Assembly (NCBI GenBank): GCA_038746835.1
Contig: JBCDKH010000010.1
Coordinates: 1-40,014 of the forward strand
Reading direction: 5' to 3'
DNA length: 40,014 bases
From: Planctomycetota bacterium
GTDB lineage: Bacteria; Planctomycetota; Phycisphaerae; Tepidisphaerales; Tepidisphaeraceae
Within the stretch, counting starts at the first letter, position 1. Each line of letters starts with the position of its first letter. Positions 7,075-27,698 of this stretch are shown in pieces. The notes beneath the pieces are model-generated. The model ran no database searches, was not told the origin of the DNA, and was given only the letters and a program-made list of their open reading frames with translations. Both the position numbers and the translations under genes were made by a program.

Positions 7075-8358
7075 TCAACCGCGTAGAAGCGTCGGTGCTT
7101 CCCATCGTCCGCCGAGGATGGCCGCGGTGACTTCGGGGCTCGTGTCGAGCCACTGCTGCAGCACGGCCGCGTAGCACTGACGGAAGTCGACGGTGTACGC
7201 GAGGTCGCCGTTGTCCAGCTGGACGAGCGACGGGTGCCGGCCCAGCAGGCCTGGCGTGACGCGATCGCCGAAGAAGAACATCGGCGCGGCCGCACCGTGA
7301 TCCGTGCCGCCAGACGCGTTCTGCTGAACGCGGCGGCCGAACTCGCTGAAGGTCATGACGGCGACGCGTTCGCTGTTGCCCTGCTGCCGCAGGTCAGCCA
7401 GGAAGGCGTCAATGCCCTGGGCGAACTGCTGCATGAGCCGGGCATGGCTGTTGAGCTGGTTCGCGTGCGTGTCGAAGCCGCCGAGGCTGACGTAGTAGAC
7501 GCGTGTCGGCAGCTTGCCACGAATCATCGCGGCGGTCGTTCGAAGACCGTCGCCGAACTCGCCGCGTGGGTAGTCCTTGGGCGGCGTGTGGCCCTGGATG
7601 GCGTCGAGCACCTTGTCGCTCGAGACCCGCGCGTCCATCGCGGTGCGTGTGAGGAAGTCGAGCTCGTCGCCACCAGCCTTACCGAGCTGCAACGCCGCCA
7701 TCGCGTCGGCGTCGGGGCCCTTGTAGCGGTAGTCGGCCGGGTTTTCGAAGGAGAGGGCCGTCACCTGCTCGCCCTGCATGGCGAGTCGATTGGACTCGCC
7801 GAGGCTGACCCCGATCTGCGGGTCGATGCTCTGCTCGATGCCCGCGGCCTGGTTGTTCGCGCCGGTGCCAGCGCACTGGCTGTCGAAGAACCGCCCGAGC
7901 CAACCGCTGCTCTTGGCCGCTTCGCCGGGGGTGGCGCTGTGCCAGATGTCCATCGACGTGAAGTGGCTTCGGTTCGGGTTCGGATAGCCGACGCCCTGGA
8001 CGATGCCCATCCGTCCGTCGTCAAAGAGTGCCTTGAGCGGTTCGAGGCTCTGGTGCAGGCCGACGTAGTCGCTGATGCGAAGCACCTGGTCGGGCCCGAA
8101 TCGCAGCATTGGCCGGGCCGCGTGATAGGCGTCGTCGCCGACGGGCACAACGGTGTTGAGCCCGTCATTGCCGCCAGAGAGCTGGACGACGACGAGAATC
8201 TTGCCATCGGTTCCGCTGTCAACGGCCACGCCCTTCTGCCCGAACGGATCGCCGACGGCAAAGGCGGTGCGGTTGATGAACGACGGCACCGTGACGCCTG
8301 CGGCGAGCATCGTCAGGCCGCTGGAGAGAAACGCGCGTCGGGTGGTGGGAGTGGGCAT
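7075..8358 (-). CDS. DUF1501 family exported protein
   Basis: Protein of about 427 residues. It starts with a twin-arginine-like leader, TTRRAFLSSGLTMLAAGVTV, and an Ala-x-Ala-type cleavage region near NRTAFAVGD. The body has DUF1501 hallmarks: VVVQLSGGNDGLNTVVPVGD near the start, GVGYPNPNRSHFTSMDIWHS, GGFDTHANQ, and VMTFSEFGRRVQQNASGGTD followed by HG. The family belongs to the alkaline phosphatase/sulfatase-like superfamily, but its substrates are unknown. It is nearly always next to a DUF1800 gene, as here. ATG 8358 is preferred because the upstream in-frame extension translates the tandem AAGCTTGAAG repeats. Confidence 0.88.
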   Translation of the reverse strand: MPTPTTRRAFLSSGLTMLAAGVTVPSFINRTAFAVGDPFGQKGVAVDSGTDGKILVVVQLSGGNDGLNTVVPVGDDAYHAARPMLRFGPDQVLRISDYVGLHQSLEPLKALFDDGRMGIVQGVGYPNPNRSHFTSMDIWHSATPGEAAKSSGWLGRFFDSQCAGTGANNQAAGIEQSIDPQIGVSLGESNRLAMQGEQVTALSFENPADYRYKGPDADAMAALQLGKAGGDELDFLTRTAMDARVSSDKVLDAIQGHTPPKDYPRGEFGDGLRTTAAMIRGKLPTRVYYVSLGGFDTHANQLNSHARLMQQFAQGIDAFLADLRQQGNSERVAVMTFSEFGRRVQQNASGGTDHGAAAPMFFFGDRVTPGLLGRHPSLVQLDNGDLAYTVDFRQCYAAVLQQWLDTSPEVTAAILGGRWEAPTLLRG

Positions 8359-8362
8359 GGCA

Positions 8363-8444
8363 GAAAGCTTGAAGGAGGAAGCTTGAAGCTTGAAGGTCTG
8401 GCTCGTCGCTTTTCCAAGCTTCAAGCTGCACTCTTCAAGCTTTC
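8363..8444. repeat. Nested inverted repeat built of GCTTGAAG units
   Basis: Between the DUF1501 and DUF1800 genes lie two nested perfect inverted pairs. GAAAGCTTGAAG (8363-8374) pairs with its complement at 8433-8444, and AGCTTGAAGCTTG (8380-8392) pairs with 8415-8427. The left half contains tandem GCTTGAAG words and the right half contains their inverted copies, around a spacer of about 22 bases. It fills the whole space between the two genes. It could act as an RNA hairpin between the cotranscribed genes, or be a relic of a small repeat element. Confidence 0.8.
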
Positions 8445-8449
8445 CGGTC

Positions 8450-9904
8450 TCAGCAAAGCTGATACTCCGGCATCGAGACGATCAGCTTGACGGCGTCGAG
8501 CGTGCCGCTGGTTGAAGGCGGACTGCCGACGGCGTTGGTGAGGCGGCGCGTCTTGATCGACTCGATTGGGCGTGGAATAAGCCGGCCGAGCCAGTAGGCG
8601 ACGACCTCGGACGGATCCTCGGACGAGGGCGTCGGTCGCGACTGAGCGGCGATGTTGCTGGCAAGGTTGTACCGGGCGAGCAGCGTCGCGGTGTTGATCC
8701 ATCGCTTGCCGTCGTACTGGCCGGGCCAGCCCTTGACGTTCGGCGGAGCGAACGGAATCTGGCCGAGCTTTTCGAGGTCGCGTGTGACCTGGCGCGGGCC
8801 AGGCAAGTCGGAACCGAACAGCCGATAGCTTCCGGCGACCAGCTGCACAGGGCTCTTGATCTTGTTACCGATGTGATCGCTGCTGTAGAACGCGCGGCTC
8901 CGCAGAATGACACGCAGGAGCGGCCGAAGCTCGAAGTTCGCACCCGACAGAACACTGCCGAGGATCGTCTTCAGCTGGGCGTCTGGCTCGGCACCGACAA
9001 AGTAGTGCCACAGCCGGCCGGCGATGTACGGCGCACAAGCCGGGTGCATGGCGAGGAGCCGAATGACCTCGTCCCCGCCGAAGCGTCCGCTGCGGCCGAA
9101 GACGGTTTTGATGCCGTTGTCGTGTCGGACGTCGTAGAACACGAATTCGACGCCGTCATGGGTCCAGCCGGTGAAGCAGCGGGCGACCTCTTTGATGTCG
9201 TTTTCGGTGTAGTTGCCGACGCCCAGCGTAAAGAGCTCCATGAGCTCACGGGCGTAGTTCTCGTTCGGGCTGCTGGCGACGTTCTGGTCGTTGTTGAGGT
9301 AGCCCAGCATCGCCGGGTCGCGACTCATCTGGGAGACCAGCTCGATGAAGTTGCCGGCGGCGAACTTGCGGAGCGTCTCGTTCTGATTCCAGAGCCGCCA
9401 AGAGCCCTCTCGGTCGTCGCGGATGGAGCTGGTGAAGTGCCCCGCCCAGAACAGCGTCAGCTTCTCCTGCAGCGGGTACGGCCCGTCAACCATCCGTCGA
9501 AGCCACCAGGCCTGACAAGCGACGATGTGCTGCAGGCTGGAACGCGTCCACTGCTGCCGCAAAAGCTGTCGCTGCGTGCGCGCTTCCTCGCCGACGCCGC
9601 GCCCGACTTGAGACATGGCTTGACGGCGTTCCTGACGCGTCCGCGGAACGTCGGCCAAGGCAGAGTCGTCGGGAACGTCGGTGCGCGACATCTCAGACGC
9701 CGAGGCATCGGGGAAATCGAGCAAGAGGTCGACCGCCCCGGACACGCCCAGCTTCTGGACAAGTGCGATTTCGTCGGGCGTGCCGCCGAAGGTCGCGCGG
9801 TTGAGCAAGTGCCCAGCCTTGACAGCATCAAACGGGTCGCCGTCACTCGGCTCCCACGGCTGAAGGTTTTCGGGCAGAGATCGTGTAAAGGAATTGGACA
9901 CCAT
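8450..9904 (-). CDS. DUF1800 family protein
   Basis: Protein of 484 residues with the DUF1800 layout: HLLNRATFGGTPDEIALVQKLG at the N-terminus, ending in a DLLLDFP segment. Then come KLTLFWAGHFTSS, a YLNNDQNVASSPNENYAREL-type stretch continuing into MELFTLGVGNYTE, EVARCFTGW, and PPNVKGWPG near the C-terminus. The function of the family is unknown; it is strongly linked to DUF1501 partners in Planctomycetota. No clear signal peptide is seen. ATG 9904 is chosen because AGGAG lies 7 bases upstream; an in-frame TTG at 9925 has no such site. It lies upstream of and probably cotranscribed with the DUF1501 gene. Confidence 0.87.
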   Translation of the reverse strand: MVSNSFTRSLPENLQPWEPSDGDPFDAVKAGHLLNRATFGGTPDEIALVQKLGVSGAVDLLLDFPDASASEMSRTDVPDDSALADVPRTRQERRQAMSQVGRGVGEEARTQRQLLRQQWTRSSLQHIVACQAWWLRRMVDGPYPLQEKLTLFWAGHFTSSIRDDREGSWRLWNQNETLRKFAAGNFIELVSQMSRDPAMLGYLNNDQNVASSPNENYARELMELFTLGVGNYTENDIKEVARCFTGWTHDGVEFVFYDVRHDNGIKTVFGRSGRFGGDEVIRLLAMHPACAPYIAGRLWHYFVGAEPDAQLKTILGSVLSGANFELRPLLRVILRSRAFYSSDHIGNKIKSPVQLVAGSYRLFGSDLPGPRQVTRDLEKLGQIPFAPPNVKGWPGQYDGKRWINTATLLARYNLASNIAAQSRPTPSSEDPSEVVAYWLGRLIPRPIESIKTRRLTNAVGSPPSTSGTLDAVKLIVSMPEYQLC

Positions 9905-10015
9905 GCAGCGACTCCTCTCGCTCAACGCCGGTCGATGGCGGTTTATTCTGCGACAATCCTATGAGATCGGTCGGCAGCCGGTGCAGCCGTTAGCGATCGC
10001 TGTTAAGTTGGGAAA

Positions 10016-15640: not shown

Positions 15641-16471
15641 TCAACGGTCCGGCCGCATGTTGGCGTTGAGGACCTCGCCGCGAGTCATGGCCTTGGCACT
15701 GCCGTCAAGGAATGCGAAGCCCGCATCTTCGTCATCTCCGTGTCGCCACCGGACGTAGCCGTTGGTCGAATCGTCTGGATTCTCGAAGTTCGGGCTGTCG
15801 GGAGCACTGTCAGTGATCGGATCAAACATGCCATCGCGATCCGGGTCGTAAAAGCCGAGGTTGACCGACGTGGGACTCACTTCCCCTTTGAAACGCTCAC
15901 CCGCTCGTGCCCAGCGCGAGTCGCGGCTGCCGTTGGGTTTGAACTCGGGAATCGCAAGGCGTTGAACGCCGTCGCCCGCCAAGATGATCTCCGAGGTCCG
16001 CTTCGCCCTCGCGAGCCGGTACAGCTCGTCGGTGATGAGCCCGAGCTGAACGAAGACCCGGCTTGGCGCGGAATAGTGGGCGATACCGCCGTCAATGGAT
16101 GCACTCGGGCACTTGAACACTTCGGACGGATCGCCGTTCGTCGCGTTGGTCATTCCGCGCTCGGGGTAAATGTAACCGTCGACCACAAACCACCAGTTCG
16201 TGCGATCGGTGTTGAAATCCCCAGAAAAGTTGAACGTGATGTTGGCCGGCGGAAGGAAACCGTCGAAGGCCTGCGCGTAGGTCAGCGTGCCCTGGTGGAT
16301 CGACCTCAGGTTGCTGAGGCACGTCACCGTCCGCCCGGACTCGCGAAGCCGACCGAGCACCGGCAACAGAATCGCCACCAGCAGCACGATGATGCCGACC
16401 ACGACCAACAGCTCAACGAGCGTGAAGCCACGTCGGCATGGGCGGCTACTGCAAACGTTCCAACGGGTCAT
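15641..16471 (-). CDS. Type IV pseudopilin-like protein, H-x-DG type (copy B)
   Basis: Protein of 276 residues, paralogue of copy A. The leader is cut at [20 protein letters not shown] (G15). Then come CLSNLRSIHQGTLTYAQAF, a segment matching [19 protein letters not shown] of copy A. The C-terminus has RHGDDEDAGFAFLDGSAK (His, 11 residues, DG) and ends NMRPDR, as in copy A. Start ATG 16471 has CAGGAGA upstream. The gene lies 67 bp downstream of PEP-CTERM copy B, repeating the PEP-CTERM then pseudopilin order. It probably forms part of a surface or secretion structure; the exact role is unknown. Confidence 0.85.
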   Translation of the reverse strand: MTRWNVCSSRPCRRGFTLVELLVVVGIIVLLVAILLPVLGRLRESGRTVTCLSNLRSIHQGTLTYAQAFDGFLPPANITFNFSGDFNTDRTNWWFVVDGYIYPERGMTNATNGDPSEVFKCPSASIDGGIAHYSAPSRVFVQLGLITDELYRLARAKRTSEIILAGDGVQRLAIPEFKPNGSRDSRWARAGERFKGEVSPTSVNLGFYDPDRDGMFDPITDSAPDSPNFENPDDSTNGYVRWRHGDDEDAGFAFLDGSAKAMTRGEVLNANMRPDR

Positions 16472-16538: not shown

Positions 16539-17282
16539 CTACCGCCGGCGACGCATCAGCATGAGCCCGGCCGGTGCGAGAATCGCAGCGGACGCAGGCT
16601 CGGGGATGACGGTCACGATCAGGCCGGACACGCTCACATCCGCGCGATTGCTGTCATCGCCATCGTCGCCAACGGTGAACGTGAAGCTCTCCCCGGCGGT
16701 GAGCTCGAGCGGCGAGGCGAAGGTGAAGAGATTCACCGACTCGCCATTCAGGTCAAAGGTCGAGGTATCCGCGAGTGTGATCGGGACGATTGTTCCGCCG
16801 TTGTCGATGAGCACCGTCTCGCCCGTCTCGAAGTTGCCGGCAAGCGCGATCGCGGTGACGAGCAGGTCTTCACTAAAGGAAAAGGTCAGCGACTCGTCAG
16901 CTGCGCCTGGCACAATGCCGACCTCATCGATCGCTGAGTTGGTGTCTTGGTTGTTGGCAAGGGCCGAGTTGATGCCAAGCCCGCCTTCGTTGAACGAGCG
17001 AAGCTCCGGACGATTCGCACCGGCCTGTGGGCCGTCTCCCTCGCCTGTGTAGTCGAGGTTCAAAGTCGTGACCGTCGCGCCCGGATCGTCGAGCGTGAAG
17101 GTCGCGAAGGTCGTCCCGGAGTCCGTGCTCGGACTCGCAACAGCGTTGACCACCAGGTCGTCGCCAACCGTGGCTCCAGGGAATCGTGTGAAGTCCAAGA
17201 CCACGGCAGCCCCGACGGACGAGGCAAGAGCCAACGATCCCGCCGAAGCGGCCATCACCAACGGAAGACGGTGCAAATTCAT
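16539..17282 (-). CDS. PEP-CTERM sorted surface protein (copy B)
   Basis: Secreted protein of 247 residues. The signal peptide ends near SLALASSVGAAVV. A beta-rich body with few charged clusters follows (residues 27-220; AVVLDFTRFPGATVGDDLVV, PLELTAGESFTFTVGDDGDD). The C-terminal exosortase signal is VIPEPASAAILAPAGLMLM then RRRR. Start ATG 17282 has GAGGAG upstream. It is the first gene of the minus-strand series ending in the agarase gene and is transcribed away from lacI, with a shared operator-like palindrome between them. Confidence 0.83.
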   Translation of the reverse strand: MNLHRLPLVMAASAGSLALASSVGAAVVLDFTRFPGATVGDDLVVNAVASPSTDSGTTFATFTLDDPGATVTTLNLDYTGEGDGPQAGANRPELRSFNEGGLGINSALANNQDTNSAIDEVGIVPGAADESLTFSFSEDLLVTAIALAGNFETGETVLIDNGGTIVPITLADTSTFDLNGESVNLFTFASPLELTAGESFTFTVGDDGDDSNRADVSVSGLIVTVIPEPASAAILAPAGLMLMRRRR

Positions 17283-19389: not shown

Positions 19390-19774
19390 TTGGACACTGT
19401 TGGGTCCCCGCCGATACCCCGCCCCGGCGCGGCCGACACCCAACGCCGACCCCGCCAACACCCGACTACGACCCACCGGCCACCCCGCCGCAACCCAACT
19501 CCGCCACCACCCCGCCGCCGGTTCGCTGCCACCCCGACAATCCGTCCCGCCGGCCGCCATCGCGCAGCGCGACGGCTCCTCGTCAGCAATCGCTGCGCCT
19601 CATCTGACTACGAAATCACCGGCTCTTCCCGCAAGCCTCGGATGCACGACCGACCGGCGTGACGAAGTCAAGCAACCGCCGGAAGCCCCGCCGCACAAAA
19701 CACTGCACCACTACCCATCGGGCGAGGTGCAGGAGGAGCGCCATCCCACGAGGTCGCCCGTGCAGAACAAGCTG
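19390..19774. other. Non-coding stretch with C-rich plus strand
   Basis: No convincing gene is seen between mqnD and the NACHT remnant. From about 19400 to 19560 the plus strand is strongly C-rich and G-poor (runs such as CCGCCACCACCCCGCCGCCG). Open frames here translate to Pro/Thr/Arg-rich low-complexity sequence with no ribosome site. Composition moves towards the AT-richer NACHT patch after about 19580. Confidence 0.5.
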
Positions 19775-21614
19775 CTATCCCGACCAGTCATCCCTCAACC
19801 TGCTGATCGTCAGATCTCCAGCTGACTCATCCTCAGCGATCTGGTCAAGCATAACCTGGTGCTGCTCACTTGCCACCCTACATATTTCATCAGCGATAGC
19901 GTCAAAGACAAACTCCGCTTTCTCAATCCCTTCCACAAGCGCAATGACGCTTCTAGTACGAAGCTCCGACTCATGGAGACTGTTATCATCAACTTCGCCT
20001 CGTGCCTTGATATTCTTCGCGAGATCGACTTTAGGAACTAGCGCCGATATATCCCTCGCCTGGGGCTCCGAGAGGCAAAACTCAATCACTTGACTAAACG
20101 GACCCATATATACAAGCTCCACAGAACGTTCGTTACCTAGATGGACTGCTTCTTCTGAATGCGAGAACAAGTTGACGTACGATTCACCGAATACAAAGCT
20201 CAACCTTCTCTTTCGCGACTCTCTCGTAGCCCTTTCGAACTCGCTTAGACACTGCCTAAGCTGCGGCTCAGCAAAGAATTTTGTATAGCGATAAGGCATA
20301 ATCTGCCTAATAAAGTTCATTTCGTTTAACCAATACTCTCCGAGATCTCGCTCGACAATGCCATGCAGAAGAGACCCCGCTGCCGATTCGTTCAACTCGC
20401 ACAGACACGACGCTGCGAAAAACTCCTGGACCGTTTTGTGCGCAAATTCGAAGACGCTTCCATCTTTGACTATCAGGCTAGTGGCCGCTTCGATGTCATG
20501 CAAGACATCGATTGGGTCAGCTTCTATTCTCAGATGTTCGATTGCCGCAATGCAGCAAGATTCCATATCGCGTGTCGAGAGAGCGATCGAACCGAATCGC
20601 TTTGATTCAAAACAGATTATCTCGAATATTTTCCGGAACGCAGAAATTTTCAGCTCGCATCGAAGCTCACGCAAGTATGCTTATTTCGACTCATCATGCT
20701 CTTCGAATAGCAATGGAAACAGCCTGTCATAAAACTCAACAGTAGTTATCGGGCAGCCGGCGTGTCTTCTTAAATATTACAAGCAGGATAGTGACAAGGA
20801 GTGGAGAAGTCAACATCTCTTCAAAGTCACTGTTCTTACTGGTGCGCAGTTGATGAATGATTGACGTCGCAAGCGTGCCCTCGGGGTCAAGTTTCCAGAT
20901 GAGCTCGTGCGCCTGCTCCTCTGATAGCGGCAGCAACGTTAAGTTACGGAAATAGCCAGATCGCTGAAGCCTTCCCCGCGGACGACTGCTAACAATGACA
21001 CGCGAATCACCGAACTCTGCGCGATGACACATTTGATTGATCGCTTCAATCGTCGCTTTCTGCGCATTGTGAGGAACTTCGTCAAATCCATCGAGGAATA
21101 CACTTACATTGTTGCGTTGGATTAAGTCTAGAACATCTCTTGGCGAAAAGTCAGCCTGAAGATCAGAAAAGTATCCAACCAATAAATCCATTAGCGACAT
21201 CTCATCTGACACATCTCTCAAGCGTACGAATGCGACGAATGCGCGATTCAACTGCTGCTCGATCGCGCAAGCATGTCGCATGAACAGAGATTTTCCATGC
21301 CCCGCGTGCCCCTCAATAAGGATGTTTCTACCGGGAAGATCATCAAGCGACCTCGCGGTGATTGCACCGAGTTGTGTTGAGAACGATCTATCTATGAAAA
21401 AATCTGCTATATCCTTTGGCTCTTTATCAAACCAGAATGTTTTGACCTGCCTCAGCTCTCGCAATCGGTGTTGTACAGCCTGCTCTAAATCAACGCGACT
21501 GATCCTACTCGATGTCTTCCTATCAATCTGTGAGAGCCTCCCGACCAGATCGGATCCAATACGCGCGATCGTCGACGTTGCAATAGGCTCGAGAGCGATC
21601 ACGTGATACGCCAC
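19775..21614 (-). pseudogene. Broken NACHT-domain STAND NTPase
   Basis: The N-terminal part (21614 to 20736, GTG start) has a NACHT domain. Walker A is IEGHAGHGKSLFMRH (G102-S109), Walker B is VSVFLDGFDEV (LDGFDE, 174-179), a sensor-like VIVSSRPRG follows, and then LTLLPLSEEQAHELI and TSPLLVTILLVIFKKTRRLP. It stops just after LPDN. In the next frame the expected continuation EFYDRLFPLLFEEHDESK is present (about 20737-20684), then an in-frame TAA at 20681-20683, and the C-terminal part runs on with FEFAHKTVQEFFAASCL, a typical NACHT post-domain motif. One frameshift (near 20742-20750) and one nonsense codon within about 70 bases therefore split one gene of about 610 codons. NACHT NTPases in bacteria include phage-defence proteins. 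The region is clearly AT-richer than its surroundings, suggesting transfer. Confidence 0.8.
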
Positions 21615-21924
21615 CTTTCCGAGACAATGCTGCTTAATGCGACGTGCGTCGCACCCGCCATGTATGGACAGTGTCTTCTACTTTCTCTCGCCCGGTTTAT
21701 GGATCGATCGACACGGCTGCGTTCGCGACGGTGGCGTCGCTCACATTCAGTTGACGTTCTTGTTCCAACCCTTTTTTGACTAACGCTTGCCGACACCCTC
21801 TTCGTCTGACGCCTCGCAGTTCGGCATGGAGTGCTTGGCGTGGACGTAGGCCGATCCTCACGTTGTATGCGCAAATGCGGCATCGTTCTCACCGTCAAGG
21901 TTAGCAGGCAAATCGAATCCGGTA
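21615..21924. other. Intergenic stretch upstream of the NACHT remnant
   Basis: Nothing coding is supported here. A minus-strand frame of 99 codons overlaps it but is Arg/Ser/Thr-rich, low in hydrophobic residues and without homology I can recognise. The stretch presumably holds the promoters of the NACHT gene. No repeat or attachment-site-like duplication was seen against the other edge near 19600-19800. Confidence 0.4.
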
Positions 21925-22878
21925 TTAATAGCCGGCGTGCAGGTCGACCTCGCTGGGTCGCTCACCCTGCGTGAGGGCCTGAAGCAGGTGGGCTAGGGCG
22001 GACAGGCGTTGGTCGCGGCGGCCGGGGCTGGAGAAGGCGGCGGCGACGTGGGGGCTGAGGAGGACATTGTCCAACGTCTCCCACGGCTGGGTGCCGCCGG
22101 TTGAAGGTTCGCCGTCGGGAAGCTGGTGCGGGTAGGTCCACCAGACGTCGAGGCCGGCGGCGGCGAGGGGGCCGGTTTGCAGGGCGGCGAACAGGGCCGA
22201 CTCGTCGAAGACGTGGCCTCGGCCGACGTTGACGATCACGCTGCCGGCGGGCAGCAGTGCGAGGCGGCGGGCATCGATCAGGCCGCGGGTCGCGTCGGTG
22301 AGCGGCAGGCTGCAGACCAGCACGTCGGCCCGGGGCAGGACGTCGTTGAGCCGGTCGATCGGCGTCGTGCCGTCACGGCCGGTGCGGGTGACGGCGGTGA
22401 CGCGGACGTCCATCGCTTCGAGGATGCGTCCGACGCGCCGGCCGATCTCGCCGAAGCCGAGCAGGACGGCCGACTTGCCTTCGAGGACGATCATCCGCTG
22501 GACGACGTCTCCCGGCGCGCCGCGACCTGGCCACTCGCCCCGCCGCTGCATGGCGTCGATCGTCGTCAGCCGCCGGCACGCAGCCAGGAGCAGTCCGACC
22601 GCATGCTCCGCCACGGCGGCCGCGTTGTCGTGGAGATTGTGCAACGTGACGCCGCCCCGCTCCAGCAGTGCCAGCCGCAACCGATCCGGCACTCCGGCCC
22701 ACGGCAGGACCCAGTGCTTCAGCTGCGCGGCATCGGCCAGCAACGCCGGGTCGCTCCCGACGATCACCTCGGCATCGGCGGGCGTGTCGACGAAGTCGCA
22801 GTAGGTGGTGTTTGCGATTAGCGCCGAGCGCTCGTCGTCGTCAGTGGCATAGGCGAGATGCACGCGGAGCGATGGCAC
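21925..22878 (-). CDS. D-isomer-specific 2-hydroxyacid dehydrogenase family protein
   Basis: Protein of 317 residues with a GTG start. The NAD-binding domain has AVLLGFGEIGRRVGRILEAM (G-x-G-x2-G) and then VTAVTRTGRDG. Later VLVCSLPLTDATRGLIDARR and PAGSVIVNVGRGHVFDESAL fit the phosphoglycerate dehydrogenase/hydroxyacid dehydrogenase family. The family's Glu and His active-site region is altered: the usual GAALDVFEEEP segment reads AAGLDVWWTYPHQ, followed by NVLLSPHVAAAFS with the catalytic-type His. The substrate is unknown. The gene stands alone between the NACHT remnant and the repeat-bearing gap. Confidence 0.82.
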   Translation of the reverse strand: MPSLRVHLAYATDDDERSALIANTTYCDFVDTPADAEVIVGSDPALLADAAQLKHWVLPWAGVPDRLRLALLERGGVTLHNLHDNAAAVAEHAVGLLLAACRRLTTIDAMQRRGEWPGRGAPGDVVQRMIVLEGKSAVLLGFGEIGRRVGRILEAMDVRVTAVTRTGRDGTTPIDRLNDVLPRADVLVCSLPLTDATRGLIDARRLALLPAGSVIVNVGRGHVFDESALFAALQTGPLAAAGLDVWWTYPHQLPDGEPSTGGTQPWETLDNVLLSPHVAAAFSSPGRRDQRLSALAHLLQALTQGERPSEVDLHAGY

Positions 22879-27624: not shown

Positions 27625-27698
27625 GGGGCGGTAGCTCAATTGGTCAGAGCCCCGGACTGTCGATCCGGAGGTTGCGGGTTCGAGCCCCGTCCGCCTCG
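27625..27698 (+). tRNA. tRNA-Asp (anticodon GTC)
   Basis: A 74-base cloverleaf. The acceptor stem is GGGGCGG (27625-27631) with CCGCCTC (27691-27697), one G-U pair, and discriminator G at 27698. The anticodon stem is CCGGA / TCCGG with loop CTGTCGA, placing anticodon GTC at 27659-27661. The T arm is GCGGG TTCGAGC CCCGT. CCA is not encoded. Confidence 0.95.

What the first reader, a model, noticed from the sequence alone, without database searches (positions are those of the whole stretch)
19775..21614. NACHT NTPase remnant in an AT-rich patch, split by one frameshift and one stop
Seen: intact Walker A and B, then the reading frame shifts near 20742-20750, continues with expected NACHT residues, meets TAA at 20681-20683, and continues in the same frame. 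Composition is clearly AT-richer than the flanks. Known: bacterial NACHT proteins include phage-defence STAND NTPases. Inference: a horizontally acquired defence gene now inactivated, perhaps because of fitness cost or lost phage pressure.
Basis: partly seen in the sequence, partly recalled or inferred. Interest (0 to 1): 0.5.

Follow-up and report, generated by a model that had tools for sequence, protein, structure and literature searches.

The report
Broken bacterial NACHT phage-defence gene
This is the recently broken remains of a probably imported bacterial immune-receptor gene of a known kind; the breakage is real in the assembly, but the kind of gene and its loss are ordinary.

Summary
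On the minus strand, 21614-20736 encodes an intact NACHT module (Pfam E 7e-12). The frame changes within 20776-20736, and the next frame runs to 19775 with one stop, TAA at 20683-20681. The two pieces match consecutive stretches (17-297, 289-504) of one 602-position family profile. Of 35 assessable relatives from one public scan, 30 encode both halves in a single frame and 5 are broken, so the split is not a conserved two-gene design. The downstream frame has 1 stop where about 16 are expected, and 26 of 28 conserved residues remain: a recent break or, not excluded, assembly error. The gene looks foreign: third-position G+C 0.52 against 0.83-0.93 in four neighbours, and 100 relatives gave only 2 weak matches. 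Its kin are short NACHT proteins of antiphage type; 5 of 33 carry Pfam SNaCT domains, the window's C-terminus none. Seven relatives were seen broken, but an hsdM control also has broken copies, so excess loss is not shown. Verdict: an ordinary pseudogene, new member of a known kind.

The parts
20736..21614 (-). Upstream piece: short N-terminal region plus NACHT NTPase core (Walker A GHAGHGKS, Walker B VFLDGFDE, SSRP), GTG start, 292 aa, ending at a stop in the wrong frame
20736..20776 (-). Overlap of the two open frames, within which the reading frame changes
   Evidence: intact relatives are continuous here
20681..20683 (-). In-frame TAA in the downstream frame, in a stretch that is coding in the 14 relatives aligned (...HDxxKxGxxRE...)
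19775..20734 (-). Downstream piece: end of the NACHT helical part, winged-helix region with FAHKTVQEFFAA, and a C-terminal part of about 140 residues without a Pfam match above cut-off
19780..21930 (.). AT-rich patch that holds this gene and about 300 bases upstream of it; limits read by eye from the composition table

Best explanation
A pseudogene of a horizontally acquired bacterial NACHT (NLR-like STAND) defence gene. When intact, such a protein would sit in the cell in a closed, nucleotide-bound state, sense infection through its C-terminal domain, bind or exchange nucleotide in the NACHT core, assemble, and trigger a response through its N-terminal part (inferred from established knowledge of STAND/NLR proteins). 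Here a frame change at the end of the NACHT core, and a stop codon at codon 18 of the next piece, keep the winged-helix and sensor parts from being made in the same chain as the NTPase. At most a 292-residue NTPase stub without sensor could be made, and it is probably inactive. Shown: the two breaks in the assembly, the family, the unusual composition, the conserved residues. Inferred: the defence role, the acquisition by transfer, the lack of function.
For: The two pieces match adjacent parts of one profile in different frames. Of 59 loci of the genome-contig scan, 30 have one frame over both halves, 5 are broken (L106, L125, L129, L130, L139), 2 stop close to a contig end (L100, L101) and 22 have no match to the second half in that test (L123, a sister of the intact L111, among them) (my sorting). 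26 of 28 columns conserved in at least 90% of 33 relatives are kept. Third-position G+C is 0.517 and 0.520 in the pieces, 0.83-0.93 in four neighbouring genes. The upstream piece was matched in 2 of 100 relatives, weakly (E about 2e-5), and the downstream piece in 0 of 100. The only matches of the family profile in the same genome are these two pieces (3 of 14 candidates scored). In 5 of 6 relatives that I chose the gene is AT-richer than its flanks; L104 is the opposite. The downstream piece, TAA read as Q, models with a winged-helix region (my reading of the secondary structure) and its best PDB matches are NLRC4/NLRP chains, at weak E (1.7e-2 at best). Intact relative L096 matches NLRC4 at E 2.9e-12.
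Against: No reads, so the two breaks may be errors of a 335-contig assembly. Two conserved columns differ (P to V, S to T). The window's C-terminus matches no SNaCT model. No close relative or empty site was found to time the break or prove the acquisition: 12 regions fetched because they hold the menaquinone gene lack the gene of the other flank (several are cut by contig ends). A weaker NACHT-like match below cut-off lies elsewhere in the genome (C171) and was not studied.
Confidence: 0.75

Rival explanations
1. Assembly or sequencing errors: the gene is intact in the cell and the two breaks, some 53-95 bases apart, are artefacts.
For: The assembly is in 335 contigs and no reads can be seen. 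The frame on either side is well preserved and conserved residues are kept, as expected of an intact gene.
Against: Two different kinds of error would be needed within 100 bases. Of seven neighbouring genes scanned, three (LacI-type regulator, menaquinone enzyme, hydroxyacid dehydrogenase) have nearly complete Pfam matches in one frame; the others have a partial (ROK), a short (N_methyl) or no match and say little.
Confidence: 0.18
2. The upstream 292-residue NACHT piece alone is a functional short protein, for instance a regulator or decoy.
For: Complete NTPase motifs and an open frame. Two other interruptions lie near the same place: the insertion in G762 (profile position about 282) and the end of L101 (residue 280, beside a contig end).
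Against: 30 of 35 assessable relatives run through this point in one frame, and the five broken ones break earlier, at residues of about 180-245, by stop, frame change or insertion. The downstream piece still looks coding, which a settled short gene would not need.
Confidence: 0.04
3. Programmed recoding (frameshift and stop read-through) makes a full-length protein.
For: Both frames keep coding signal.
Against: Two recoding events would be needed. Intact relatives are continuous without them, and by eye the overlap sequence shows no slippery site known to me (recall).
Confidence: 0.03

Closest known systems
Bacterial NACHT (bNACHT) proteins of clade 14, with short NACHT-associated C-terminal (SNaCT) domains
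   Same: Same order and size: short N-terminal region without a recognised effector, NACHT core, winged-helix region, short C-terminal part. Homology to relatives of which 5 of 33 carry Pfam SNaCT11 or SNaCT1. Passages of PMC12169576 say that clade 14 proteins contain SNaCT domains, lack readily discernible effectors, and include bNACHT02 and bNACHT12, which protect against phages.
   Different: Broken by a frame change and a stop. Its own C-terminus matches no SNaCT model. Clade placement was not tested, for lack of the reference set.
NACHT protein WP_015632533.1 of Klebsiella plasmids
   Same: 609 aa with the same layout; 30% identity over query residues 100-290.
   Different: Intact and plasmid-borne. 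I recall, but did not verify, that it is one of the tested bNACHT proteins; none of the 10 papers listed holds its accession.
EruA, NACHT domain-containing antiphage protein (NCBIfam NF058535)
   Same: Relatives L096 and L034 match part of it (E 3e-9 and 6e-9); the window's upstream piece only at E 0.087.
   Different: 1318 positions long and the cut-off is far from met; a different, larger protein.
Animal NLRs such as NLRC4
   Same: Fold of NACHT plus winged helix in the model of intact relative L096 (E 2.9e-12).
   Different: Distant fold-level likeness only (TM-score 0.42 on the query for the top match); the leucine-rich repeats of NLRs (recall) have no counterpart in a protein of this size.

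Membership tests
NACHT STAND NTPase | NACHT domain above the curated cut-off | tested here: met
   PF05729 E 7e-12, 45.9 bits, cut-off 26.7
NACHT STAND NTPase | Walker A and Walker B motifs | tested here: met
   GHAGHGKS and FLDGFDE; conserved columns 109, 111-113 and 178-183 kept
NACHT STAND NTPase | NACHT core and winged-helix region in one continuous chain | tested here: not met
   Frame change in 20776-20736 and TAA at 20683-20681; the gene is a remnant
bNACHT clade 14 (SNaCT-bearing) | SNaCT domain at the C-terminus | tested here: not met
   No SNaCT match for the window's downstream piece; 5 of 33 relatives match one. C-termini of the 15 rows aligned differ widely
bNACHT clade 14 (SNaCT-bearing) | No recognised N-terminal effector domain | tested here: met
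   No Pfam match that starts before residue 80 of the upstream piece at E up to 1
bNACHT clade 14 (SNaCT-bearing) | Place in clade 14 on the NACHT tree | not tested
   The reference set was not held; in the tree the window is a long branch without a supported place
bNACHT clade 14 (SNaCT-bearing) | Antiphage activity | not testable with these tools
   Needs phage challenge

The most novel reading that the evidence does not exclude
Short SNaCT-type NACHT immune genes are gained and then broken unusually often, by stops, frame changes and transposon insertions, a trace of a self-damage cost that makes them disposable; the window is one case of a wider pattern.
Probability: 0.15. Interest if true: 0.45.

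Novelty: new member of a known kind. Interest (0 to 1): 0.2.

Why it matters
A single broken defence gene changes little. It adds one recent-looking case of loss of NLR-like immunity. Two of its same-class relatives correspond to records named Phycisphaerales and Phycisphaerae (Planctomycetota), so the host lineage is one in which such immunity is little described (recall). Seven further broken relatives were met in passing, so whether such genes are lost faster than other accessory genes could be measured properly with large genome sets.

Tried and rejected
Two conserved separate proteins: rejected, relatives are mostly single frames. A mobile element around the gene: one imperfect inverted pair (36 nt, 72% complementary, 19486-19521 and 22154-22189) brackets the patch; it lies in G+C-rich simple sequence and I take it for composition, untested. 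Transposases in the patch were not searched beyond the Pfam scans of the two pieces (only a sub-threshold TnpV at E 0.2). One tRNA, at 27625. An empty site in relatives: not found. None of the 60 relatives listed is of the window's own genus, and 12 regions fetched around the menaquinone gene hold no relative of the hydroxyacid dehydrogenase gene; 3 of the 12 (L158, L162, L165) hold relatives of window genes at 7075-9964 beside it, so gene order differs anyway. Viral contigs: 3 pattern matches, none confirmed. Solved structures by sequence: nothing meaningful. PADLOC: only mad8 at E 0.047. E. coli genomes with the Klebsiella NACHT gene, megablast: no match. Tree: window unsupported. A literature search for defence systems, pseudogenes, autoimmunity, fitness cost and NACHT (4 of 5 terms) listed 3 papers, none opened.

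Excess breakage of NACHT genes was tested and not established. In 100 genomes of the genus of G470 (the genome of Psychrobacter immobilis L097), 12 copies have one full-length frame, 2 are broken (G475:C38, G530) and 3 are cut within 80 bases of a contig start (G475:C51, G475:C55, G484) (my reading, where up to 13 candidates a genome were scored). For hsdM, 70 copies are above the cut-off; 1 looks split by about 11 kb (G551) and one spans the start of a contig (G502). 2 of 14 against 1 of 70 gives P 0.07. Broken hsdM copies tend to fall below that cut-off, for example G550, G514 and G532 with internal stops; with a rough tally of mine, 8 of about 110, which is no exact count, P is 0.31. The P of 0.015 for 5 of 35 against 1 of 70 compares different genomes and is not used.

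Full report
What is there. The window lies in a 3.85 Mb, 335-contig genome. On the minus strand a GTG-started frame runs from 21614 to a stop at 20738-20736 and encodes 292 residues with Walker A, Walker B and SSRP motifs and a Pfam NACHT match at E 7e-12. A second frame, open from 20776, carries the sequence expected next (FYDRLFPLLFEEHDESK), meets TAA at 20683-20681, and runs on to a stop at 19777-19775. The overlap of the two frames, 20776-20736, contains the frame change.

Is it one gene? A profile of 29 relatives (602 positions, window not included) matches the two pieces one after the other: positions 17-297 (E 1.4e-58) and 289-504 (E 6.5e-43, one TAA inside). A scan of public genomes gave 59 relatives. 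By my sorting have one open frame that covers both halves, 5 are broken, 2 stop close to a contig end (L100, L101), and 22 have no match to the second half in that test, most of them NACHT proteins of other layouts. So the split is not a conserved design. The stop falls in a stretch that is coding in the 14 relatives aligned. The five broken relatives break earlier in the gene (residues of about 180-245); the insertion in G762 (profile position about 282) and the end of L101 (residue 280) lie nearer to the window's frame change.

How old is the break? The downstream frame has 1 stop in 319 codons; a Markov model gives 16.5 on average and 0 of 5000 simulations had as few. Of 28 columns conserved in at least 90% of 33 relatives, 26 are kept, counting both sides of the breaks; P to V and S to T are the exceptions. 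Third-position G+C is alike in both pieces (0.517 and 0.520). The break is therefore recent, or is an error of assembly. Reads would decide and were not available.

Is it foreign? Third-position G+C is about 0.52 against 0.93, 0.85, 0.88 and 0.83 in four neighbours. The AT-rich patch spans about 19780-21930. Among 100 relatives, the upstream piece finds 2 weak matches (E about 2e-5) and the downstream piece none. In 397 genomes of the class, 43 have some match to the profile, but only 6 reach E 1.4e-58 or better, the window's own included (3 candidates a genome were scored). Four of these six read in one frame; the fifth, G762, is split by an insertion with a DDE_3 transposase; the sixth is the window. 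In 5 of 6 relatives that I chose the gene is AT-richer than its flanks; L104 is not. Relatives lie in Planctomycetota, Pseudomonadota, Bacillota and others. Transfer is the natural inference; no donor or empty site was found. Of 12 regions fetched because they hold the menaquinone gene, none holds the hydroxyacid dehydrogenase gene of the window's other flank.

What would it do? By homology it belongs with short bacterial NACHT proteins. Five of 33 relatives carry Pfam SNaCT domains, four SNaCT11 and one SNaCT1. Passages of PMC12169576 state that clade 14 bNACHT proteins contain SNaCT domains, lack readily discernible effectors, and include proteins that defend against phages. The window's C-terminus matches no SNaCT model, so membership in that clade is not claimed. 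The model of the downstream piece (TAA read as Q; mean pLDDT 73.6) has what I read as a winged-helix region; its best PDB matches are animal NLRs but weak (best E 1.7e-2). The model of intact relative L096 (mean pLDDT 78.9) matches NLRC4 at E 2.9e-12.

Other broken relatives. Ferrimonas senticii L106 (one in-frame stop), Methylotenera mobilis L125 (Mutator-family transposase inserted), Paracidovorax citrulli L129 and Metabacillus crassostreae L130 (frame changes), Psychrobacter sp. PG1 L139 (a TGA inside the match, and a transposase-like frame on the other strand after the break, my reading without a family search), G530 (frame change near a contig end) and G762 (transposase). These seven and the window are eight cases. 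An hsdM control in the same genus also shows interrupted copies, so a special tendency to break is not shown.

Verdict. It is an ordinary pseudogene of a known kind.

Noticed in passing
L198 (G762:C29:16500-20300), 1275-2351: A DDE_3 transposase frame sits inside a NACHT gene of the same family in another genome of the same class, splitting it at about profile position 282.
   Followed up: yes
L125:5459-6697: A Mutator-family transposase (PF00872, E 5.9e-124) splits the NACHT gene of Methylotenera mobilis 13.
   Followed up: yes
L118: A contig binned as Nitrospinaceae carries a NACHT gene close to those of Shewanella and Colwellia (short branches): recent transfer or a binning error.
   Followed up: no
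G564 and G470: Two Psychrobacter-genus genomes hold three and two full-length NACHT genes of this family, while 73 of the 100 searched have no match at all.
   Followed up: no
window 19400-19599: A C-rich (on the + strand) stretch between the menaquinone gene and the AT-rich patch, G+C 0.76 and GC skew -0.45 and -0.34 in its two 100-base steps.
   Followed up: no
window 19486-19521 and 22154-22189: An imperfect inverted pair (36 nt, 72%) brackets the AT-rich patch; probably composition, not tested.
   Followed up: no
window 16539-17282 (-): A 247-aa predicted secreted protein ending in a PEP-CTERM-like tail (recalled motif), without a Pfam match; next to a prepilin-like gene with an N_methyl motif at 15641-16471.
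   Followed up: no
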